Both the position numbers and the translations under genes were made by a program. The notes under the pieces were generated by a model. That model was not told the origin of the DNA. It made no database searches and saw nothing but the letters and a program-made list of their open reading frames with translations. A stretch of 64,000 nt of DNA from Melampsora larici-populina 98AG31 (Eukaryota; Basidiomycota; Pucciniomycetes; Pucciniales; Melampsoraceae): contig NW_006768798.1 of assembly GCF_000204055.1 (NCBI RefSeq), positions 423,743-487,742 of the forward strand. The letters are read 5' to 3'. Numbering within the stretch: the stretch's first letter is position 1; each line of letters starts with the position of its first letter. Of this stretch, positions 33,983 to 63,053 are shown one piece after another.

Positions 33983-34061
33983 TTATATCTGAAAATGACT
34001 AGAACCAGAGCTGACAATTCAATGATTTGATACCAACTCTTGGTTAACAGTGTGTCAATCA

Positions 34062-34735
34062 GAGCATCCACTATGGGTGCCTTAACAACGTGATTTAGCG
34101 TTACCGTAACGCTAAAATCCAGACAGGCCCACTATGGACCTGTTTTAGACATGCGGTCCGTACGACCGCGTCAAGTCTTGCAGTCCGCTTGTTCAAATCT
34201 ACAAAAGCCTACGACTTGATTTATTGTAAACTTTTGGCGCATCCAAACGGTCAACAGCCATCCAATGATCTATCTCCCATCCAGCTCTGCACTCACCACC
34301 TTCACTCAAAACCTTCCCTCTTCCCTCGAACTCTCAGCTTGTTGATAGTAGCTGTTTACTCCGGATTTGCAAAAAAAAGCATCTTTTTTCAAAAAAAGTC
34401 ATCTCGCGCGATCGATGTCACCAAGATCAAACAAGAGGTGAGAAAGCTCTTTGCTGATTGTCAAAACCTGAAGGCATCAATTTGGTTCTTTCTGGTCACC
34501 AAGGTAGTCATCAGCATAGGCTGGGTGAGGTGTGGTAAGATACTTCAATTTGAGTCTTGACTTTGCCATAGCGTGTATAGTGTTCTAAGAACAGATTATC
34601 GTAGTTAAATCCTACGTTACATCATCCCATAGTGGATTTCATGCGGTTAACAACTTAGCTACAACACGCATGATTAAATTTTGTGATCAGGACCGCAAAA
34701 TTTACGATAAAACACCCTCAACATAGTGGATGCTC
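34062..34735. mobile_element. PIF/Harbinger-like non-autonomous element
   Basis: 14-bp perfect TIRs GAGCATCCACTATG at 34062 and its complement ending 34735, flanked by TCA on both sides (34059-34061, 34736-34738). A 3-bp TNA-type duplication fits PIF/Harbinger. It contains a 123-codon open frame (34189-34560) with VTKIKQEVRKLFADCQNLK that has no transposase motif. A related copy hosts the large KDZ element (50929-50955 plus 62944-63053). Confidence 0.75.
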
Positions 34736-50545: not shown

Positions 50546-50925
50546 CATGTGCAGGGCAAAGAAAAGATTAAAAGAAAAGAAATAACATGGATCAAAATTG
50601 AATACAAGAAGAGAGTTTGGTTGAAGGTTTGTTTTTGAGAAAAGGTTAGTAAAATTAATATGTAAATCAAATGTTACCAGAAAAAAAAAACAGTAAAAAA
50701 AAAGTTTTACAATAGGGGGCTTCAAGTTTGATTAGATTTTATGTATTTTTCAAGAATTCAGAGAAGTTGTTTATAAAGATAATTTTTGTAAAACAGACAT
50801 ATTTTTAGTTTGAGACACCTAAAAAGATGTCTGACTTTAAAAAGATTGTGCATATTTTACAATGACAAGCAAGTTGTTGTAGCATCAAAATACATAAAAA
50901 AAAGTTAACTTGAAACTCCCTAATG
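50546..50925. other. Intergenic
   Basis: About 380 bp of AT-rich DNA without genes or clear repeats. Confidence 0.5.
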
Positions 50926-50928
50926 TAA

Positions 50929-50955
50929 GAGCATCCACTATGGTTGCCTTGATGA
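50929..50955. mobile_element. Left fragment of the host MITE (PIF-like)
   Basis: GAGCATCCACTATGG followed by TTGCCTTGATGA, matching the terminus of the element at 34062 and preceded by TAA. The rest of this MITE resumes at 62944 after the KDZ insertion. Its right part (62944-63053) matches 34087-34192 (CAGACAGG, CTATGGACCTGTTTTAGAC, GTCTTGCAGTCCGCT). Confidence 0.8.
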
Positions 50956-51030
50956 GGGAGCACCGAAGAACCGGGGGAAAGTTGCTGAGAATGTGAGAAT
51001 GAGAATTTTATGAGAATATGAGAATACCGA
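50956..51030 (+). repeat. Left terminal and subterminal repeats of KDZ element
   Basis: The terminus contains ACCGAAGAA followed by CGGGGG; then TGAGAATG, TGAGAATG, AGAAT, TGAGAATA and TGAGAATA words in direct orientation within about 60 bp. Confidence 0.75.
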
Positions 51031-51530
51031 ATTTCAAGTTAAGCATACTTACATGTCGTACGCATATGCTGAAAACGGGGGGGTGTAAGTCCAAAACCTT
51101 AACGTACAGCCTGCCCTCCGAGACCTTTCACAGCCTCACCAATTCCTCAGCGCCCCTTGTTTCATGCAAATTTTTTCCTCCAAAATTTTTTTTCGCATAC
51201 TACTCGATATCTAATGCGCCAACCCCAATATGAATATGCCCACGCTGTTATCATCCTCCAGCTCATTCAGGCCATCCAACCCTCAAAGTCAAAAACTTGG
51301 AATCGCAATAGGATGGTTCCAACCCTCATAACCGCCTCTTACGTGATGGTCGACCCTCACCCTCACGCTCAGCTACCAGTACCTTGACTCGATGGTCTCG
51401 TCGGTCTAAGGTGCCCCGTGTGCTTCACCCCGTTGGTTTACAAGCGTGCCAATAAGGATTCGTGGCTGATCGGAGTGAGTGACGTCGATGTATCTCTCAG
51501 ATAGTTCTCACATTCCGCCTGGACACTGAT

Positions 51531-53406
51531 ATGCTCTTCCTCAACGACCAGTGCCCAACGCCGTCAAACTCGCACAACTGGAAAACTTGGAGATGTGACC
51601 AACTGAACCACGAGATCGCCTTGATCAACCTTGGCGCGCCTAGGCCTATCATCTCGAACATGACCGAATGGGGTCCCCGGGTGTCACCGTATGGTCAGAT
51701 TCTAGAGGACACACCGGCCGCGTCATCAGCTGCGTATAATCCCTATCCCAGCTCTCAATTGGCCCATTCATCCCCTACCCCGATGCCACGCTCTAAACCG
51801 ATCTTGCAGTGCAAAAGGATGTTGGAAGGCGCCAAGTCTCAAAATCACAAAAATGCCGCCAACAAAGATTGTTTCTCACAATTCTGTCGGGGTGTAAGAC
51901 AATTTCCTTTCTATATATGTAACAAATGTCCATACTCTTAGCCTGACATCGGTTGTTTCTATACTTCAAAGTGCTGTGTCGATTTTGGTTCACCACTTTG
52001 CCGCGTGCACCCACGGGCTTTGCCGAGGACACTTGCCAATAATCAACCCCACATCGAGCTGAACCAACCACACCACCTCCTAACGCACGCCAGCAGCACC
52101 CAGGCCCCCAATGCGATCTTGTCCAAGGGCCCTGCTTCCCAAGCGCGTCCACATCAGTGGGCGCAATCATCAAATTCCCTTGGTCGTCGGCTTGACGTGA
52201 ATACTCATGCGATGCTCCAGCAAAATTGCGCCCAGCGGGACCAAGCTGCGACTCGGCATTCCATCAATCTCATCGATGAGAGAAAGATGGTAACTCTCTA
52301 CTTATGGGTCGATGTAAGATTTTTTTCCATATATAATCTGCGATCAGAATGTTCCTCTGATCGCTTTGTACTGTTCCAGGAAACCGAAGCGCGCCCAATC
52401 ACTGCACTGTTCCCTCAGTGGCCCACAGCTTGCCTGGACCAAAGTCCACTTTTGGTCCAGGCCGTAGTGAAAGTAGTTGGCCCCCAGTGGAATCAAGCGC
52501 TCACCGTTTGGGACACAGAGCTATATGCTTGGGTGAGTCCAGTTTATGCGATCCCGCCTCATGTTACAATCCAAGCTGATTCTGTTCACCGCGCAGCGGG
52601 AAACCCTTGTAACATATCCTCATCGTTACCAGAGCCATCTTCGCAGCTTGGTGGTGCGTCTGGCAAACGTGACAGTACCTCTCTCAGCAATACCCGAGGC
52701 CTTGCGCCCCCCTCCCCATGGCACAACTACCACACCACTGCCGCCTGATGCTTTCCGATCAACCACCGAACTGCCTCCAATTTGCGATATGCCTTCTTCC
52801 CCATTCAGCGCTAACCAAGCTGAAACTAATGGTTCTTTGCCTTCGGAAGATCACTTACTTCCAAACTCCTCACCCAATATGAAAATCCAAAGTCAGACCG
52901 GCAGTGAGCTGCAAGCACCCGATGATAAGAGCGACCGTTCGAGCGAATCCTCACCAAAAAGGCCAACTGCAATGACTGTAATTGATATTTCACAGTCACC
53001 GGACCTTCCTTCAAATAAAGACAGTGATGTTGAAGACTCAGCCACCCCCAGTGTGTAAGTATTTTCTTCAAGTTGAACCGGCTTACAAGCTCTATTTCTG
53101 ACTGATTTTTCCAGCTCCCTGAAAAAACGTTGGCCAGGATCCAAGCTCCCGGTGTCCATCCTGCTTGCGTGGTACAAGGAGACCGCCCCAGGTAATGTCC
53201 AGCAAAAATGGTCAGAACGATTTGGTCGGCAATGGCGGTTGTGCCTTTCAACCGTTTACCAATATCATCTTTGGATCGCGGAGGTGGACCACGAAGTTAT
53301 GGAGACACAGTTCCGATCTCAACCAAAAGCAACTGTAGGAGACGCTCGTAACCTTTACCAACAAGAATTCAAAAGAGTTGCAAGGCTCAGCAAGCAAGCG
53401 TCATAA
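51531..53406 (+). CDS. KDZ-element cargo protein with N-terminal cysteine cluster
   Basis: Five exons, 51531-51893, 51972-52313, 52380-52532, 52597-53054, 53115-53406, with canonical sites; phases close to give 535 codons without a stop. The start at 51531 is the first ATG in frame, but an additional upstream exon is possible. A cysteine/histidine cluster is assembled across intron 1: CFSQFCRG joins CCVDFGSPLCRVH (pattern CX4CX2CCX7CX2H), likely zinc-binding. The middle domain has KMVTLYLWVDE, FPQWPTACLDQ and WNQALTVWDTELYAW. A long Ser/Pro-rich disordered region follows (about residues 230-420). The C-terminal domain LKKRWPGSKLPVSILLAWYK, WSERFGRQW, STVYQYHLWI looks like a small helical, perhaps DNA-binding unit. 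I have seen similar three-part proteins in rust genomes but know no function. Lying just inside the left TIR, it is probably a transposon accessory gene. Confidence 0.75.
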
Positions 53407-54051
53407 TGTCCTCTGGTATGCATGTCTTGATTCATTTTTGTTTGGGTGAGCTTGCTATTCGATACTGAAACCCTCTGTATCTATTGGTAATTAAGGGTTT
53501 TACTTTCAGGGTTTCACTTCTACATACCCTCATCGAATCATGTTTATTTTGTTTTAAAACACGCATGTGTCCAATGTTCAGGTCCAGGGGGAACTGATCT
53601 AATCTTTACTTACTGACCTGTACGGCCATGAGTCCCATCTCTGATTAAATTCATTTTGTAGTTGAAGGGCTTTGAAATGCATGGCCACTCACGCCTTGGC
53701 GCCTTGCAAAAATTGATTGCTTCATGTTTTGACGCACACCGCGGTAAGCCAAGCCGAGTACCTTACATGGTGTGCCACGCTGAAAATTTTGACTCAAAAG
53801 GGGCTCAGGTCAGGTGAAAGCGATCATTGTTCCTTTGATTCTTTCCCACCTTTTTTACTTTTTCTACACTTCCCTTTCAATTTTCTTGGTGATTATCATT
53901 CACCTCTTTCTGCTCTTCCTGTCATGCTCTTTAACATACCGAACAACCGCCCGATGGCGGTGACTACCATGACTCGGTTGGACTATGGCCATGCACCTTA
54001 TCTCACCCAAAGTCTCTCCGACCGCAGCAAAAGGGCCGTTAAACGTCAGTC

Positions 54052-55179
54052 ATGGCCTATTTATCCTGCCCTTATACCACGTCCTATCTAACTTCCCGCG
54101 ATTCCAGGTCACTTCTTGACGACCCACTCAACCGGGAATACTGGCTGCCACGGCGTATTCGGCGGTGCGTCATCATTGCCATGACTTGTTGGCCACCAAA
54201 CACTGACCCCCGATTTCCCAACTCAGTGCCAGTTCTTCCACCCATAGTTGCGAACAACGATATACGTGGTGCGCTTGGTGCCCAAGCTCTCAACCTGCCA
54301 TTGATTCCCAAAAAAAGCAATGCCATGGTAACTCTCCGCCAGGACGTACATACCCAGCACTTTCATTACGATTCCAACCATGTCAAGGTCATCATGGGGC
54401 CCACCATAGTCAATTCTTGGGACTACTCAACGTACTCTGCCCAAATGGATTGCCCCGGTGGACACCTCGACATTGAATTACGCGAAATGACTGCTGACCC
54501 CGATGTTACCCCCGCTGAATCTGCTGGCCAATACCAGCGGCTCGTTCAGCAGGATTATTACGCCGCTACCCTGTTGGAACTGTTCAAGAACAAGATGAAG
54601 AGGCACGCGCCTCACCTTACCGTTCCGGAGGCCAACCTTGTGGCAATGACTCGGGTACGTCTCCAAAGTGGTTCTTTCTGAAAGCGCCCACATTGGCTGA
54701 TATGGTTTATTGCTTCAGTTTGTCGAAAGCCATGTCCTATGCCGCCGTGACGCAAACACTCGTAATGATAAGACTTACCTGTTGCAAGCCCCAATCAATG
54801 TTCTCCACCTGCGCACCGCCACTTCAACAACCAGCTTTGAACCTCCAGAGCATGAAGGCAACAGTCCCATGGAAGATTTCTTGTATGCCTTTACACACTT
54901 TACGTATGAACACCACAATCGCCGCGCTCTACTGTATGGATTCCAAGCCACTGAAAACACCATATATTCGTCAGTCCTGCTGGATAGAGAGTATGTGTCC
55001 GTTCTTACTATATAAATAAGATCTTTCATTTCGTTCATGAGTCTAAACTACACCCTTTGGTTAGTTTCAAATGGCATGCAGAACGATCCTCGACCCCCCT
55101 AAAGTATTTTGCAGAAGAGCATGAATGTCATAGCCTTTGCAAGCGACTGGGGCTTAAAGCGCCTGTGTTACCTTGGTAA
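54052..55179 (+). CDS. Alpha-kinase-like protein (atypical protein kinase, MHCK/EF2K type)
   Basis: Exons 54052-54654, 54719-54990 and 55065-55179 close in phase to 329 codons. An upstream exon (53924 to about 54044; LDYGHAPYLTQSLSDRSKRA) with a good branch point and acceptor before 54108 (CTAAC...CAG) probably belongs too, but no donor gives the right phase, so the 5' end is uncertain or damaged. Features of the alpha-kinase fold: LLQAPI (hinge-like), a helix before YAFTHFTYEHHNRRALLYGFQ (compare the family SHFSYE...L.V.DIQG), the TDP-like YSSVLLDRDFKW assembled over intron 3, and the C-terminal zinc motif FAEEHECHSLCKRLGL, which matches the conserved H/C module ending this kinase family. 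The N-lobe lysine is not obvious, so catalysis is unproven. Alpha-kinases phosphorylate Ser/Thr in helical substrates. Large alpha-kinase families are, as I recall, reported in rust genomes. Confidence 0.65.
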
Positions 55180-55888
55180 GCAGTGTCACCTGCAAGCGCT
55201 TTTGGTACGCTGCTATACATCAAACACCGTATGATACATTTTGCGTTTAAGGTGCTCATGTCGATGAGCTTTGTTTGATTGATAGCGTTTCAATTCAATG
55301 TGTCCTGATTCTGCGTATTCTGTCTCTTGAGCATCAATGGCTTGCACATACAGTAGTGTTACTGATCATTACCCCCGCGACCTTTTTTTTTCTCAAGGAG
55401 TTTGATGTGTGCTTTGTGTATCTTTGTTGTTTTTCTGTCTCTTCCAACTTGGTTCGTAGCAAATTACATCTGCCACCCCTGGCATACCTTACACTCATTT
55501 AACAAATCAAATTGGTGCCCATTTCTAACTTGCCACTTGCCTACCTACCTTCAAGTATGAATAGCAAGATGATATAAAACTAAACAAATTTTATAAGTTT
55601 TTGATTACTTTAAATGTAATCAAGAAGTTATCAAGATCCAGATCTATAAAATTTTATTCAAGTCAAAATTGCATTAAATTGCATTGCCATTCAAGTTAAG
55701 TTAGGTCTGTCAAACTGCCACTCTCAAACACCATTCCTAGGTAATGAGACAAGGTGATGTAGTAAAAAAACCAAAAGTGGAGCATACTTCAAGTTATGCA
55801 GATGCTATCCATAACACTCTGGAGACATTGAACTGATGTGGTCTGAGGCAAGCCAACAGTGGCTCCAGTTTTCCTTTCAGTGCAAATA
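55180..55888. other. KDZ interior, no gene
   Basis: About 700 bp downstream of the kinase gene; AT-rich with no recognisable gene. Confidence 0.5.
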
Positions 55889-55953
55889 CTCCAAGCATGG
55901 GATTTGAACCCATGCACACTTTGATTGATTGGCTGAAGAGTCCATACCACTAG

Positions 55954-57744
55954 CACTGCGGGAAATTCGCTGGCGTGAGCCTGGCTCGCGCCACCGTGAC
56001 GTGAGCCACGGGTTGGCCCCGGTCTGAAGCCAACCAAAATTCACACCAACGTCTGACGTAAGCCATTGGTTCGTTGAAGACATCCAGCTGGTTGACGTAC
56101 GCCATCGACTACAGATTCATCCAATCCTCCGCTCGTCCAATCAAGCTGATCATCCCACCCCCATAGCCCTTGATCTGGATTGTTCTCTGTTGGATACCAA
56201 AACATGGTTTTGGAGTCTCTGCACTGGTATCTCTTTGTTTTCAAAATCCATAGTAACTCACAGAAACCTAAACATCATTGAAAGAGAAATCCATTACATA
56301 ATTTGAAAGAAAGCTTGAAACAATCACATCCTACATTTACAAAAAACGAGATACTATAGAGAATTGGTTGTTTGCTATATCCAAAATAGAACGGAGCAAA
56401 AATAGTCAATCAATCGATTCATGCATCTCAAATCGCTGATTTGTCTCTTGCTGTACCTCTTAATTTAACACAATCCTTTTAGAACCAATCTGAACATGAA
56501 AGCAGCCCAAATATCTCAGAATCGATTCAAAACATGCCTGGATATGAAGAACAAAGTCATCGGTTTCTATTTCAAACAATCTCAATCATTTGAATGAAAT
56601 GATCCTACTTGAATTTCACCATTGATGCGCGCTAGAATGATGAAGTCAATCAAAAAGGCAACACGAGGATGCCTACTGCCAGATTACTGACAGTAGCTTC
56701 AGTTTGAATATATGTAATCTCAAATATCGTTTATAGATGTATGCTATAAACTCAAACAAATTAATCTTGCAAGTGAGAGAAAAAGATAATACATCCGTAC
56801 AAATGAGCTCATTGATAAAAATTGATGAAGTCAAAAAAGAGCCTCAAGCAGTGAACATTCGATCAAACAAATACATAAATTACAGAATGTATATTACTTT
56901 GCATTCATTCTCATTCAATCGTTCATCCAGTTTTCTGGAAGATTTTGTTAAAATTTCTAGATAGAAGTGATCATTGACACTATCTTCATCATTAAGAAAT
57001 CCATTGATTTCTTCTTCTTGATCTTTTTCAACTTGAGCAGATTTACCAAGTGTTGATTTAAGCCTAGGGTGAAAGAAATCTTCTAAGCTTGAGTCAGAGA
57101 ATTTAGGTAATGGTAATGGTGCTGATGGTAAGTTTTGGATAAGTTGATGAGAATCAGATGGTTGTGAGACATTTAAACCATCTGAAATCAATCCCATGCT
57201 CCGGTCAGTGAATTTGATTGCAGGCATTGTATGTCGAAAAAATGGATGTGGTTGAGTAGGTTGCGGAATTGCCTGAGGATTTGATTCGCAATTCCGAGGT
57301 AGTTTTCTAGGCATTGAATCAAGTTGAGATGAATGTGGTTCAGGACAAGAGCTTGTGACATTTCTTGAGGATGACCCATGACTCGGATTCAGATTTTTAG
57401 ATTTAGGCATTGAGTTTTGAAAAATCAATGTGGTTGAGGAGCTTGTGAGATCTCTTGAGAATTTAATTCACGGTTCGGATTGGTGAAACTGAGTGGTTTT
57501 GATTGTTGGAAAAATACAATGAGGTCCAGGAGCCAAGTTTGCTGGGTGGCATAGGAAGTGATGAAGATAAAGATCAAAAAGTGGATGCGAACGAATGAGT
57601 GGCAGTCGTCAAGGCTGTCCTCAACCGACCAATGGCTGACGTCAGGCGTCGGTATAAATTCTGGTTGGCTTCAGACCGGGGCCAACCCGTGGCTCACGTC
57701 ACGGTGGCGCGAGCCGGGCTCACGCCAGCGAATTTCCCGCAGTG
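55954..57744. mobile_element. CACTG-ended DNA transposon, 1.8 kb, nested in the KDZ element
   Basis: Long TIRs of about 128 bp with roughly ten mismatches, starting CACTGCGGGAAATTCGCTGG at both ends, flanked by TAG on each side (55951-55953, 57745-57747). Each TIR contains direct repeats of GACGTNNGCCA. CACTG ends and a 3-bp duplication suggest the CMC/EnSpm (CACTA) superfamily, but no transposase is present. An open frame of 182 codons lies inside. Confidence 0.85.
56880..57428 (-). CDS. Uncharacterised open frame inside the CACTG element
   Basis: Up to 182 codons, Ser/Pro/Asn-rich (PKSKNLNPSHGSSSRNVTSS), with a more structured acidic C-terminal part (LEDFFHPRLKS, EKDQEEEINGFLNDEDSVND). No catalytic motif, signal peptide or membrane helix. 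It could be a captured host gene fragment or chance; nothing supports a transposase. Confidence 0.3.
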   Translation of the reverse strand: MIFQNSMPKSKNLNPSHGSSSRNVTSSCPEPHSSQLDSMPRKLPRNCESNPQAIPQPTQPHPFFRHTMPAIKFTDRSMGLISDGLNVSQPSDSHQLIQNLPSAPLPLPKFSDSSLEDFFHPRLKSTLGKSAQVEKDQEEEINGFLNDEDSVNDHFYLEILTKSSRKLDERLNENECKVIYIL

Positions 57745-57876
57745 TAGACTATGGCCACTTGGAATCCCCAGGGCTCCCGGGGTTATGGCGGATGACGGAA
57801 ACATGGCTAGACCAAGTTTGCAAATAACCAAATGATCCACCAATGGATCATTGGGTGCTTGTGTCCCCTCTTTTTG

Positions 57877-57929
57877 GTCCCCTCACACAGAGGGGACAAC
57901 ACATGGTTGTCTCCTCTGTGTGAGGGGAC
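57877..57929. repeat. Near-perfect 24-bp hairpin
   Basis: Arms 57877-57900 and 57906-57929 (GTCCCCTCACACAGAGG and complement as core) with one mismatch and a 5-base loop ACATG. It is not followed by a T-run typical of a terminator; probably the end of a small foldback repeat. Confidence 0.8.
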
Positions 57930-58040
57930 AATTAACATAAGGCTTCCATCACAAATATACAAACATCAATGCCAATGAGAAGCTTTGAAATAAATTGACA
58001 AAGCATCAGGCATTGATGTTTGACAAAATGATGTCCAAGA

Positions 58041-58118
58041 TCAATCATTTGTCACCAAAGCCAAAGGAGTGGCATCCATCAATCATTTGTCACCAAAGCC
58101 AAAGGAGTGGCATCCACC
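58041..58118. repeat. 39-bp tandem duplication
   Basis: ATCATTTGTCACCAAAGCC... through GGAGTGGCATCCA occurs twice in a row without visible differences. Confidence 0.85.
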
Positions 58119-58985
58119 AGGCCAACCTGACTGAAGCTGCAATCAATCATCAAAATGACAAATTGTCTGGGGAGACCATTTTGCTGGCCGAGTCTTGTGT
58201 TTGCTCTTGAACACTGTTTATGTGTTTAAGAGAAAACACCAGACTCCTTCTTGGAATCTTGTGAAACCTTGATAAACAAGTTCCAACCAAGAGCCTCTCA
58301 GACTGAAATAATGTATCAAGAATGGAAGTCTGACTGATGATTGCCATTACCATAGGTGACCCATATCCCTTCACATTTGGTTTGGCTCCCGTTTGTCCAC
58401 ACACCCAGTTGAATTCCTTTCACCCACCATGATGCTGGTTGGGATTGATGATGTATGTGGACCCAATCATCCCTGCCCAAATGAGGTAGAGAGCACACCT
58501 CCTTTGATGAAGACTTACTTGTGTGTAATTTTTTATGTCTGAACGTGAAAGGAATGGGTTTGTAACTGGCTTTGATGAGAGTCATCGCATCACAGTGCGC
58601 TCTCATCCAACCACAACATCACTGTGATGATTCTCAGATAAGGATAAGGAGACAGTAAACATTGGAGTCACATTTTGCATGCCATTGTGTGTTCACGTGG
58701 TTATGATGAGACATAATTTACATCCAAGCATATTTGGAAACTACATTTGGTAGTTTCAGTGGTCCCCAGCGATTTGTAGCAAACATGGTAGGTATTTGGT
58801 TGTGGAGACCCAAATACCCAAACCCCAGGGAAATATTGAGAGATCACTCATTTTCAGTTCCTTGGTTTGGTGGGCAGATTGTTTAGTTAGGTAGGTGGTG
58901 TGCATCTCTATCAATTCTCTGATATTCACAAGAATTCAGTCAAGATATTAAAAGGTAATGAGTCAAACATAACAAATATGCAAGC
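58119..58985. other. KDZ interior, no gene
   Basis: About 870 bp; an open frame at 58316-58606 (minus) contains many aromatic residues (DDWVHIHHQSQPASWWVKGI) and may be a scrap of another transposase, but no motif is complete. Confidence 0.35.
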
Positions 58986-59510
58986 AGGTGATATTCACAT
59001 GAACTCACCAAAGTTCAATCAAGTGAACTTTGTGTTCATCTTTTAGGTAGTGGTCTTCATATGAACTCACCAAAGTTCATGGAAGTAAACTCTTTGTTCA
59101 TCTTTTAGAAGGTGGTATGGTATTGGTATTCACATGAACTCACCAAAGTTTGAAGTAAACTCTTTGTTCATCTTTAGTGGTATTCACATGAACTCACCAA
59201 ACAAAGTTCATGGAAGTGAACTCTTTGTTCATGTTGTGGGTAGTGGTTTTGTACATGAACTCACCAAAGTACAAAAAACCAAGTGAACTCTTTGCTCATC
59301 GTTTTTTGAACTTTGGTGGGTGGTATTCAACTCACCAAATTGCATGGAAGTATGGTGAGTTCATCTTTTAGGTAGTGGTATTCACATGAACTCACCAACC
59401 AAAGTTCATGGAAAGCAAGTGAACTCTTTGTTCATCTTTTGGGTAGTGGGATTTTCACATGAACTGACCAAAGTACAAACAACCAAGTGAACTCTTTGTT
59501 CAACTTTGAG
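58986..59510. repeat. Minisatellite, about eight units of 55-76 bp
   Basis: Each unit carries CACATGAACTCACCAAAG, often GTTCATGGAAGTGAAC, then CTCTTTGTTCATCTTTTAGG and GTAGTGGT. Units vary by substitutions and short indels. The AAGTTCA / TGAACTT words can pair within a unit. Confidence 0.85.
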
Positions 59511-59624
59511 GTTGCAGCCTTTAAAGCATGCCATTTTCATACATATGCGGCTAATGATGAAAAAGAATGACAGTTACTCTCATATGTATATACATGGCAA
59601 CTCATCTTAACAATTGCAGTCAGG

Positions 59625-59972
59625 TTTGGCATACCATTGTGTGTCCTATTTTCTCTTGATGACATTCTTTTACTTGAATAATGTACATCAAGAATAGAAA
59701 GAACCAAGCTTTTCAGCATGCCACACTTCATGTTTTTCAAACACTATCTTGTCAATACAGTGTTTGACATTTTCATATGTGGCAGAGCATGAATCTCTTT
59801 TGGCATACCATTGTGTGTCCTATTTTCTCTTGATGACATTCTTTTACTTGAATAATGTACATCAAGAATAGAAAGAACCAAGCTTTTCAGCATGCCACAC
59901 TTCATGTTTTTCAAACACTATCTTGTCAATACAGTGTTTGACATTTTCATATGTGGCAGAGCATGAATCTCT
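59625..59972. repeat. 174-bp tandem duplication, essentially identical copies
   Basis: Copy one 59625-59798, copy two from 59799. No difference is seen over about 168 bp, ending GCAGAGCATGAATCTCT. Very recent event or an assembly duplicate. Confidence 0.9.
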
Positions 59973-60177
59973 CATGTATTTGGAATTCATATTTCAGGAT
60001 GAAGAACAACAAGATGGTGGGGCTTCCACGGAAAGTTGAGTTGCAGTCCAAAACAATAGGCCAAGAGCAAAGAGCAAAGAGGATGACATGTATTCATTAA
60101 TTATTGGCCAGACAATTTCCTATTTTGTCAAACATTGGACGTTGATGTCCTCCTGTTGGATAACTCGCAAAAGAAAA

Positions 60178-62449
60178 CTACAAGACACCCTCCCCAAGAT
60201 ACTCCATTCCAGATCTTTTGTCCAGTTTTTTTGTCAGCCAAGCATTCCTCAGATACACCATCTCTTCCAAAAAGAAGTTATAGACTAGTGAATGCATGTT
60301 CCGACACATGGAGGCAAACCCACCATACCATATGTTTGTCAATTTGGCAGCTGAAGCGTTGAAGATCCATCGTCCCTCTTCTTGGATATCTGGAAACAGC
60401 TTGGGGTCAGTGAATAGCTTGCAAAACTCGTCGGACTCGGCGTGCGAGCGGTGGTGGAAGGGATCCACAGGGATCACCGTTCCCGCCCACCGGGATGCGT
60501 CCGACTGGCCTGCGTAGATGTGTTCGGTCAACCTGCATGCGTTGTCATAAAAGACAACCTCTGGCATACGTTGAGGAAAAGATTCTTCCACAAAGTCCTG
60601 TGGTTGGTTAGAGATAGAAGACATGGTGAGCACATGAGCACATGTTAGGGAAGAAGTGATCGATCAGTGAACTACCTACCTTTACTGCACTCACGGATTC
60701 CGCATTGTAGAAGGTCTTTCTGGCTAATATAATTCCGCATGGTGCAACAATCAGCTGATCGTTGTGCGTTCGGCTTCTTGATAATAAGTATTTCCCTGCC
60801 GCCTGTGACTCGCCCCCATCGCGCGCCGCTTCGTGTGCTCGTTGCGACTCATCTGCGTGCTGTAAAACCTCTAGGTTCAGAATCTGCGCAGTGTCGGCAT
60901 CAAGATGGACAGTCGGGTCGGTAGGAAGGTGTGAGCCTGGTCGATTGAGAATCGACGTGAGAGAAAAGTTCCCTTTGATTTTTTCGTTGAACGCTGCCCA
61001 GGCCTTGATGTGATCAACATCTTCACATGTCTCTGAACCAGTAATTGCGGCCTTTGAACACGGCTGAGCTTGACATCGATTGCCCAGTATCACGAAATGA
61101 TCTCGGCAGAAACGGTCATTGATGTTATCAAGTTTGTTGGTACAAGGTCCTTCGGGCATTGGGTGGCCTAGTTTAAGAGCAATCTCTCGCAGTTGGTCAG
61201 AAGAGGCGCTACAGCGCCAGTGTCCGATCGTCAGGCCATCCGTGACCACGGCCCGTATAGCTGAGATGGCAATCATAACATGTCAGACAAAAAGGTGTTG
61301 TTAGGAAAAGATCGAAATGGAACTTACATTTAATATACTCTTGGCCAGTTTCACTATCTACACCATCTGATTTCACACGGACACAACTAGAACAAAAGTG
61401 GTCTCTATACTTTGTTCCTTCTATCAACAAGAGGTCAAGGTGAGATTCTATTGCCTACTCGAAACGTATGTTGTCCACACCGCTTGAGCTGACCACCAGC
61501 TGAGTACCGCGACGGTCCGCGTGCTTCATCAGAGAATGAAGGGTCAGACCATGCCGACACGCTTCCTCGGACATCGACGGAGTAAACAGTTGGCCAGCGG
61601 TGAAAGTCGGAGCAGGTGTATCTTCTACAAACATCATGTTGTACCAGTTGACCAGGTTGAAATGCGACACACTGTCCATACCACGTAATAGCAGTTAGTT
61701 TGGAACTGTGACAGCAACATAAGTGGAAGAACTTACTGTGCCAACATTTGGAGGACACGGAACATGTAGGCTAATCGACGAGACATGTAATAGTGACATA
61801 GTACATGAAGGTAATCGTCTTCTCGGCCCATGGCCTTCGTGTAATAAAGTCTTTCGCCGTCTCGGTTGTAATAGCTGGGTCTATATACTGTCCCACATTT
61901 GGGATCTGATGCATCGCGAAATAGTCAGTAATTGAATCGACTGTTGCGGCAAAATAAGCAAACTTAACTGGAGCAATTCAGAATGACAGTCTGAACCGTG
62001 TGCACGCCATCGATATCGTGCAGGTAGCCGTTTATGCGAGAGTGGACGTGTAACACATATGACTGGTCTGGTGTGCAGACAATACATTTTGAAAGTGGTG
62101 AGCGTAGGAATCGTTCATGCATGTTCGTGTTTGTGGTGCCGGGTGAGGACAGTTGGATGCCGAGTTTGCGGATGGAAGCTCCTGGGTCGATTCGGCACGC
62201 GCGCAGAAATGGGAATGATAGGTGCCATAGATCGGCCAAAAGATGATTCGCGGTTGGTTGCATTGATAAAGCAGATTGAAGAAAGGGTAAGACAGGGTTT
62301 CGATCGGGTGATAGACGTAAGGATTTCCCGGCGCGGTGGTGGACTTCGCCTGCCAGGGTTGCAAATCGGACGAAATCGGTGACGGTAAGTGAGGTCGAGA
62401 GGGAAGGAGACTGGTTGTCGAGTAGGGTGGTGAAGTCACGAAGGAGCAT
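60178..62449 (-). pseudogene. KDZ transposase with CxC-type zinc clusters, one in-frame stop
   Basis: Five exons: 61969-62449, 61737-61905, 61328-61671, 60680-61260, 60178-60597, all with good GT-AG sites; phases close exactly to 664 codons. Exon 1 has a helical N-terminus (MLLRDFTTLLDNQS) and a first cysteine pair KCIVC. Across intron 1, LNCS joins NPKCGTVYRPSYY (second pair). Next come YYMSRRLAYMFRVLQML, HFNLVNWYNMMF, DHFCSSCVRV, then the RNase H-fold core: AVVTDGLTIGHWRCS (first Asp), the cysteine cluster GNRCQAQPC, NFSLTSILNRPGS, SRSRTHNDQLIVAPCG, VVFYDNACRL (second Asp), VDPFHHRSH, FNASAAKLTNIWYGGF and YNFFLEEMVYLRN. The domain set matches the KDZ transposases with CxC5/CxC6 clusters known from Puccinia. 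Damage: a TAG at 61455-61457 (probably CAG to TAG), and lysine where relatives, as I recall them, have Glu in AAEQxNxW. Likely inactive. Confidence 0.85.
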
Positions 62450-62869
62450 GGTAGTGAGCAATTGGGTGAACGCCTATTTTGAAAGAGTTCGAATGATCAT
62501 TAGTGAGTAGTAAGAATGCAGAATGGAGGGGAAGAAGGCGAATATATGTGACTCATTAAGCTGAGTCGTTACACAGATCAATTCTTACCGGGTGGGTAGG
62601 GATGTGGATGTGTGGATGTATGTTTAACTGGATCGAACGGTGGAGGTCATCATCGTTGATGTAGTTGAGGTGGAGAGTGTAAGGAGTAAGGTTCCCGAAT
62701 CGGGGTGAATGGAGATGTCACCTGTTGGAAACCACTCGACCCACCATCCGGCCCCCGGCTATCTGAGTTCCGATTTAATGGACAAAAGGTTTCGTCCGTC
62801 TAACATTAAGTCAGTATGTGCAGCATGTGGTTGGCAATTTACATACGAGTTTCCCAGTATAAACCCATA

Positions 62870-62943
62870 TATCATGGGAATGTGGGGGATTCTCAGAGTT
62901 CTCAGAGCGTTCTCAGGGGTCCCCCCGCTTCTTCGGTTTACCG
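62870..62943 (-). repeat. Right terminal and subterminal repeats of KDZ element
   Basis: Read inward on the minus strand: CGGTAAACCGAAGAAGCGGG, then CTGAGAAC, CTGAGAAC and CTGAGAAT words. Matches the left end in ACCGAAGAA, the G run and the repeats. Confidence 0.75.
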
Positions 62944-63053
62944 CTTGATGACATGATTTAGCATCAGTTTAATTCTGAAAGACAGACAGGTCCCCTATGG
63001 ACCTGTTTTAGACCTGTGGTTGGTACAACCACGTAAAGTCTTGCAGTCCGCTA

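What the first reader, a model, noticed from the sequence alone, without database searches (positions are those of the whole stretch)
50948..62951. Complete 12-kb KDZ transposon with provable ends and an 8-bp target duplication
The sequence shows a perfect CTTGATGA repeat at both ends of an 11,988-bp block. The flanks outside the block join into one MITE sequence collinear with another MITE copy at 34062 (…GCCTT[GATGA]C[A]TGATTTAGC against …GCCTTAACAACGTGATTTAGC). That is an internal empty-site comparison and fixes the boundaries to the base. Established knowledge: KDZ superfamily transposons exist in fungi, and Zisupton makes 8-bp duplications. Complete KDZ elements with cargo and defined TIRs in rusts are, to my knowledge, little described.
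Basis: partly seen in the sequence, partly recalled or inferred. Interest (0 to 1): 0.88.

Follow-up and report, generated by a model that had tools for sequence, protein, structure and literature searches.

The report
Three-gene rust transposon with exact ends
A 12-kb jumping DNA element in a poplar rust fungus has exact ends and an 8-base target duplication, carries its own jumping enzyme, a zinc-finger-like protein gene and a kinase-like gene, and belongs to a group of similar elements in the same genome whose relation to known families is unsettled.

Summary
Block 50956-62943 (11,988 bp) is flanked by CTTGATGA, and its joined flanks match 39 uninterrupted MITE copies. End motifs pair at 14 places: 12 have perfect, different 8-bp duplications, one is degraded, and C18, the closest copy, has none. 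The genome is Melampsora larici-populina 98AG31, inferred from four contig lengths.

It is a DNA transposon, but KDZ membership is unsettled: the transposase has CxC5 and CxC6 and no detected KDZ domain.

The cargo is specific. A Cys/His-rich protein gene is convergent to CxC6 at 64 of 82 loci. An alpha-kinase-like gene accompanies it; its 23 matches all lie within 15 kb of CxC6 or gene 2. Subterminal repeats are TGAGAA here and TGATAA in C42, each 5 left and 3 right.

This copy's transposase is broken. It differs from C18 mainly by CpG, often TCG, transitions.

Dileera elements with 8-bp duplication and IS3EU alpha-kinases are already published for rusts (PMC12730594). I rate this a new variant of a known kind.

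The parts
50948..50955 (.). left copy of 8-bp target duplication CTTGATGA
50956..62943 (.). complete transposon copy, 11,988 bp
   Evidence: same end bases in the C18 copy
50956..50977 (+). left terminus GGGAGCACCGAAGAACCGGGGG
   Evidence: genome-wide pattern 21 hits with up to 2 mismatches, reversed-pattern control 0
50986..51024 (+). five TGAGAA subterminal repeats
   Evidence: positions read by eye from its output
51313..53406 (+). gene 2: multi-exon Cys/His-cluster protein, approximate limits set by eye
54043..55176 (+). gene 3: alpha-kinase-like protein, several exons, approximate limits; PF02816 in 54701-55012
55954..57744 (.). 132-bp inverted repeats (55954-56085 / 57613-57744, 92%) around an open frame of unknown nature
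58992..59972 (.). minisatellite (58992-59232) and 174-bp perfect tandem duplication (59625-59972, single in C18)
60181..62449 (-). transposase gene, several exons, broken in this copy; start set by eye
60995..61246 (-). CxC6 domain, containing the TDG motif
61970..62119 (-). CxC5 domain, first part
62890..62915 (-). three TGAGAA subterminal repeats
   Evidence: positions read by eye from its output
62922..62943 (-). right terminus, reverse complement CGGTAAACCGAAGAAGCGGGGG
   Evidence: genome-wide pattern 18 hits with up to 2 mismatches, reversed-pattern control 1
62944..62951 (.). right copy of 8-bp target duplication CTTGATGA

Best explanation
The block is a complete copy of a DNA transposon of the CxC5/CxC6 class, inserted in a MITE, with three genes: a Cys/His-rich protein and an alpha-kinase-like protein read from the left, and a transposase read from the right. 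Shown: exact ends, 8-bp duplications in 12 of 14 end-paired elements, a recurrent gene arrangement, short inverted termini with 5 + 3 subterminal repeats, and a deletion derivative that keeps the ends. Inferred: the transposase is a DDE-type enzyme (TDG ... FYDNAC ... N-A/S-SA-x-E) that binds the subterminal repeats, perhaps with gene 2 protein as a partner, and moves the element by cut-and-paste with 8-bp staggered cuts. The kinase-like protein may act on host silencing or on the transposition complex; that is the weakest step. This copy's transposase is broken, so it could move now only with enzyme from another copy.
For: Ends and duplications: (14 pairs formed by eye; 12 perfect). Empty site. 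Recent movement: C42 and C53 are 99.76% identical over the 4,997 bp compared, with different perfect duplications. Deletion derivative: the 1,255-bp C4 copy matches the two ends of the 4,758-bp C16 copy at 98%, both with perfect duplications. Gene 2 is convergent to CxC6 at 64 of 82 merged loci (about 3.3 expected near CxC6 in any orientation). Alpha-kinase: 47 of 144 loci lie within 15 kb of CxC6 (5.8 expected), against 6 near KDZ domains (6.4 expected); the 23 matches to this element's kinase exon all lie within 15 kb of CxC6 or gene 2. The subterminal motif differs between families but agrees at both ends in the window, C18 and C42 copies.
Against: The closest copy (C18) has no target duplication, unexplained. 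No excision footprint was sought. The predicted transposase structure is too poor to show an RNase H fold (mean pLDDT 45). The kinase match is weak and partial (E 2.7e-5); 83 of 132 CxC6 loci have no listed alpha-kinase within 15 kb, although that listing is incomplete and misses the window's own kinase. Of the 47 kinase loci near CxC6, 31 are convergent, 14 tandem and 2 divergent, and 5 of 20 kinase-exon matches near gene 2 are on the opposite strand, so the arrangement is not fixed. Of 82 gene-2 loci, 17 have no CxC6 within 15 kb and one has it in another orientation. The 7 left and 4 right end motifs without a partner were not examined.
Confidence: 0.85

Rival explanations
1. It is an ordinary KDZ element, most likely of the Dileera lineage already described in rusts, whose transposase the Pfam KDZ model does not catch.
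For: Zisupton-1_PGr, a rust Dileera element, makes 8-bp duplications, and Dileera families occur in M. larici-populina (PMC12730594). Pfam's own names tie CxC5/CxC6 to KDZ. By eye, both transposases share the order YDxxC, FHxxxH, CQ, [DN]P, then E.
Against: PF18758 was not listed for three full-length relatives at a limit of E 10. hhalign probability is 1.8% or less, over 13-16 columns in local mode. A custom profile alignment scored no better than shuffles (106 of 200 reached it). The precomputed Pfam column of 54 homologues never lists KDZ. These tests used shallow alignments, and no Dileera reference was available.
Confidence: 0.45
2. Gene 2 and the alpha-kinase are chance passengers or nested insertions, not part of the transposon's own gene set.
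For: The middle of the element holds repeats and inverted-repeat pieces, many CxC6 loci lack a listed copy of one or both genes, and orientation varies.
Against: 64 of 82 gene-2 loci are convergent to CxC6. 23 of 23 kinase-exon matches are near CxC6 or gene 2; 15 of the 20 near gene 2 are on its strand. Gene 2 is conserved at protein level between the window and C42 elements.
Confidence: 0.06
3. CxC5/CxC6 inserts are moved by Copia retrotransposons, as suggested for the Pleurotus MSH4 insert.
For: Proposed in PMC7641404 from co-localisation (passages).
Against: Exact 8-bp duplications and shared inverted termini on 12 elements are those of a DNA transposon.
Confidence: 0.02

Closest known systems
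Dileera (KDZ) elements of rusts, e.g. Zisupton-1_PGr (Kojima 2025, PMC12730594; abstract, sections and passages read)
   Same: 8-bp target duplication (stated for Zisupton-1_PGr), DNA transposon with an extra gene, rust fungi including M. larici-populina
   Different: Those described carry a TET/JBP dioxygenase; the Tet_JBP model gave no match over cut-off in this assembly and none in the element, though that model may miss the rust type. The transposase relation could not be tested.
CxC5/CxC6 insert in the Pleurotus ostreatus MSH4 gene (PMC7641404, passages read)
   Same: One protein with CxC5 and CxC6, many copies, not joined to a KDZ domain
   Different: There 6,792 bp; a word search of that main text found neither 'inverted repeat' nor 'target site'. 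Here the ends, duplications and partner genes are defined.
IS3EU elements of rusts (PMC12730594)
   Same: TET+ families carry an alpha-kinase gene in opposite orientation to the transposase
   Different: 6-bp duplications and TAYGG...CCRTA ends, against 8 bp and GGGAGCACC...GGTTTACCG
Cryptococcus KDZ1 (PMC12810828, passages read)
   Same: About 11 kb, 8-bp duplications
   Different: 241-bp TIRs, CxC1 and KDZ domains

Membership tests
[quoted passage not shown]
   12 of 14 end-paired elements have perfect 8-bp duplications; C2 degraded, C18 none
KDZ superfamily | KDZ transposase domain (PF18758) | tested here: inconclusive
   Not listed at a limit of E 10 for P0004, P0011, P0024; hhalign 1.8% or less; profile alignment no better than shuffles; shared motif order by eye only
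KDZ superfamily | CxC cysteine-cluster domain named by Pfam as KDZ-associated | tested here: met
   CxC5 E 9.5e-8, CxC6 E 1.4e-19
KDZ superfamily (Zisupton; Dileera Zisupton-1_PGr) | 8-bp target duplication | tested here: met
Dileera | Grouping with Dileera transposases in a tree | not testable with these tools
   No Dileera reference sequence was at hand
Dileera TET+ elements | TET/JBP dioxygenase gene | tested here: inconclusive
   PF12851 gives 2 sub-cut-off matches elsewhere and none in the element; the rust type may escape this model
IS3EU | 6-bp duplication and TAYGG...CCRTA ends | tested here: not met
   8-bp duplication, GGGAGCACC...GGTTTACCG
Alpha-kinase family | PF02816 domain over curated cut-off | tested here: met
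   24.8 bits against 21.3 in exon 54701-55012, profile 73-149 of 185; the two neighbouring exons gave no family; catalytic competence not tested

The most novel reading that the evidence does not exclude
CxC5/CxC6 proteins are the transposases of a DNA transposon superfamily of their own, wrongly filed under KDZ, with a recurrent three-gene plan in Melampsora (Cys/His partner, alpha-kinase-like protein, transposase) and transposase-specific subterminal repeats that changed together at both ends. Such transposons would be one source of the alpha-kinase expansion in rusts.
Probability: 0.35. Interest if true: 0.7.

Novelty: new variant of a known kind. Interest (0 to 1): 0.55.

Why it matters
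CxC6 is abundant here (132 matches), and CxC5/CxC6 proteins have been read as add-ons of KDZ or of Copia elements. Exact ends, duplications and partner genes make them testable as transposons in their own right. About a third of the alpha-kinase loci listed in this genome (47 of 144) lie within 15 kb of CxC6, which bears on why rusts have so many alpha-kinases. The paired change of repeats at both ends gives a natural test of end recognition.

Tried and rejected
KDZ relation: Pfam with a limit of E 10, hhalign and a custom profile alignment gave no significant match; only the motif order agrees by eye.

TET/JBP cargo: PF12851 gave only two matches, both under the cut-off and not in the element.

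PDB sequence searches with one transposase piece and two kinase exons gave nothing. A protein search with a gene 2 piece from the window found nothing; a longer piece from C2 found 16 proteins, all from Melampsora.

C18 as a segmental duplication: its flanks differ from the window's at the exact element ends, so its lack of a duplication stays unexplained. No tRNA gene was found in the window.

Rows dropped: of 207 KDZ matches, 150 were listed and 145 went into the control; the five left out are four second pieces of listed genes and one missed by oversight, and none has a listed alpha-kinase within 15 kb.

Full report
Observation. The block 50956-62943 is 11,988 bp and is flanked by CTTGATGA on both sides. 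The direct repeat is exact at 8 bp and at no other length from 4 to 12; random 8-mer pairs in the window agree at 7.5e-5. The joined flanks match 39 uninterrupted MITE copies through the junction, among 40 scored of 162 candidates; the 40th is the window's own flank.

Where it is. The window is C34:423743-487742 of a 98.3-Mb, 243-contig assembly. Four contig lengths (C38, C16, C15, C81) equal those given for MELLADRAFT proteins, so I take the genome to be Melampsora larici-populina 98AG31, poplar leaf rust.

Other copies. The left end pattern occurs 21 times and the right end pattern 18 times, with up to 2 mismatches; reversed-pattern controls gave 0 and 1. I paired them by eye into 14 elements of about 1.0 to 18 kb. 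Seven left and four right ends had no partner and were not followed. Twelve of the 14 have perfect, different 8-bp duplications: C34, C38, C4, C16 (two), C42, C53, C23, C49 (two), C15 and C81. C2 has a degraded one (aagtttgt / aagttgtg), and C18 has none (gagttttc / taaactca). C18 is the closest relative of the window copy: 99.44% identical over 11,675 aligned bases with five gaps, and with the same end bases. C42 and C53 agree at 99.76% over the 4,997 bp compared, which implies recent movement. C4 (1,255 bp) is the two ends of C16 (4,758 bp) at 98%, a deletion derivative that still has its own perfect duplication.

Ends. The left terminus GGGAGCACCGAAGAACCGGGGG and the right one CGGTAAACCGAAGAAGCGGGGG agree at 17 of 22 positions (counted by eye on the output). 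Inside them lie TGAGAA repeats, five on the left and three on the right, all pointing the same way relative to their end, against 9 in the 11.7-kb interior on both strands. In C42 the motif is TGATAA, again five and three. C16 and C4 have four TGAGAA left and three right; C38 has three left and one right; each of these three also has one TGATAA on the left. That the motif agrees at both ends of the window, C18 and C42 copies suggests, by inference, that it is what the transposase recognises.

Transposase. On the minus strand near the right end lie CxC5 (E 9.5e-8) and CxC6 (E 1.4e-19). One search with the matching C42 piece found 54 proteins, from Melampsora, Puccinia and unnamed sources; their precomputed Pfam domains are CxC5 and/or CxC6, or none, and never KDZ. 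The alignment of ten of them shows ordered motifs TDG, FYDNAC and N-A/S-SA-A/G-E; the last two lie in a part covered by six of the ten rows. I read these as a DDE triad, by inference. In the window copy a stop codon interrupts the part between CxC5 and CxC6, and the acidic residue of the last motif is basic; C18 reads open and acidic there. This copy is therefore probably not autonomous.

KDZ question. Pfam KDZ (PF18758) has 207 matches in the genome with 150 of 555 candidates scored, but was not listed for the transposase pieces or for three full-length relatives with the limit at E 10, where filters drop most matches above about 0.1. Profile comparisons with KDZ domains of the same genome were not significant. 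By eye the motif order YDxxC, FHxxxH, CQ, [DN]P, E is shared. A study of Pleurotus found intact KDZ transposons preceded by CxC2 and never by CxC5/CxC6 (PMC7641404, passages read). Kojima 2025 (PMC12730594; abstract, sections 10, 26 and 34, and passages read) places TET+ rust elements, with an 8-bp duplication for Zisupton-1_PGr, in Dileera; I had no Dileera sequence to compare. Membership stays open.

Gene 2. A multi-exon gene on the plus strand (about 51313-53406) encodes a protein with two Cys/His clusters and a conserved C-terminal part. It has 114 matches in the genome (140 of 140 candidates scored), merging into 82 loci. Of these, 64 lie convergent to a CxC6 match at a median of 4.4 kb, one lies near CxC6 in another orientation and 17 have none within 15 kb; about 3.3 would be expected near CxC6 by chance. 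Of the 132 CxC6 matches, 64 have such a partner. Sixteen homologous proteins were found, all from Melampsora.

Gene 3. The next plus-strand gene (about 54043-55176) has an exon with a PF02816 alpha-kinase match over the cut-off, covering part of the domain (E 2.7e-5); the exons on either side gave no family. Its C7 relative matches too (E 7e-5); the C2 relative falls just under the cut-off. In the genome 147 alpha-kinase matches were listed (150 of 243 candidates scored), merging into 144 loci; the window's own exon is not among them, so the list is incomplete. Of the 144, 47 lie within 15 kb of CxC6 (5.8 expected; 31 convergent, 14 tandem, 2 divergent), against 6 near the 145 KDZ matches used of 150 listed (6.4 expected). 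A search with the window's own exon gave 23 matches (41 of 41 candidates scored): 19 lie near CxC6, 20 near gene 2, and all 23 near one or the other; 15 of the 20 are on the strand of gene 2. Against this, 83 of 132 CxC6 loci, the window's own included, have no listed alpha-kinase within 15 kb, so how general the gene is stays open. Alpha-kinases are reported as highly expanded in rusts (PMC4469406, passage read) and as part of TET+ IS3EU transposons (PMC12730594). Whether this one is active is untested.

Mutation pattern. Between the window and C18 copies 55 of 65 substitutions are transitions; 43 of the 55 keep a CpG partner G in both copies. Reading the context from the window copy, 45 of 55 are in CpG, against 811 of 5,235 unchanged C sites, and 30 of the 45 are in TCG, against 218 of 811. 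Kojima cites TCG hypermutation in repeats of Pucciniomycotina. The copies thus look targeted by cytosine-based silencing; this is inference.

Verdict. The KDZ name is unsettled, the 'little described' claim is outdated for Dileera, and the cargo is a recurrent partner gene plus an alpha-kinase-like gene. My literature searches covered open-licence papers only; in their listings and in the passages I read I saw no description of complete CxC5/CxC6 transposons with this three-gene plan. A rust transposon survey (PMC12210899, passages) has neither 'KDZ' nor 'Zisupton' in its main text and mentions an unknown TIR family kept in Melampsoraceae. Iyer et al. 2014 was not held.

Noticed in passing
G000:C18:1255446-1267121: The copy 99.4% identical to the window's has the same end bases but no matching 8-bp flanks. 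Rearrangement after insertion or exchange between copies are possible; not resolved.
   Followed up: partly
window 55954-57744: 132-bp inverted repeats, 92% alike and 1.5 kb apart, inside the element, possibly a nested insertion; an open frame of 195 aa (56880-57467, minus) lies between.
   Followed up: partly
window 59625-59972: A perfect 174-bp tandem duplication present in the window copy and single in the C18 copy.
   Followed up: no
window 50924-50955 with 62952-63051, and 34061-34188: The target MITE is a high-copy repeat: 162 first-look candidates genome-wide, 40 scored.
   Followed up: no
G000, alpha-kinase loci not near CxC6: 97 of 144 listed alpha-kinase loci lie away from CxC6, among them 66 of the 68 highest-scoring matches; they might belong to IS3EU or other elements.
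   Followed up: no
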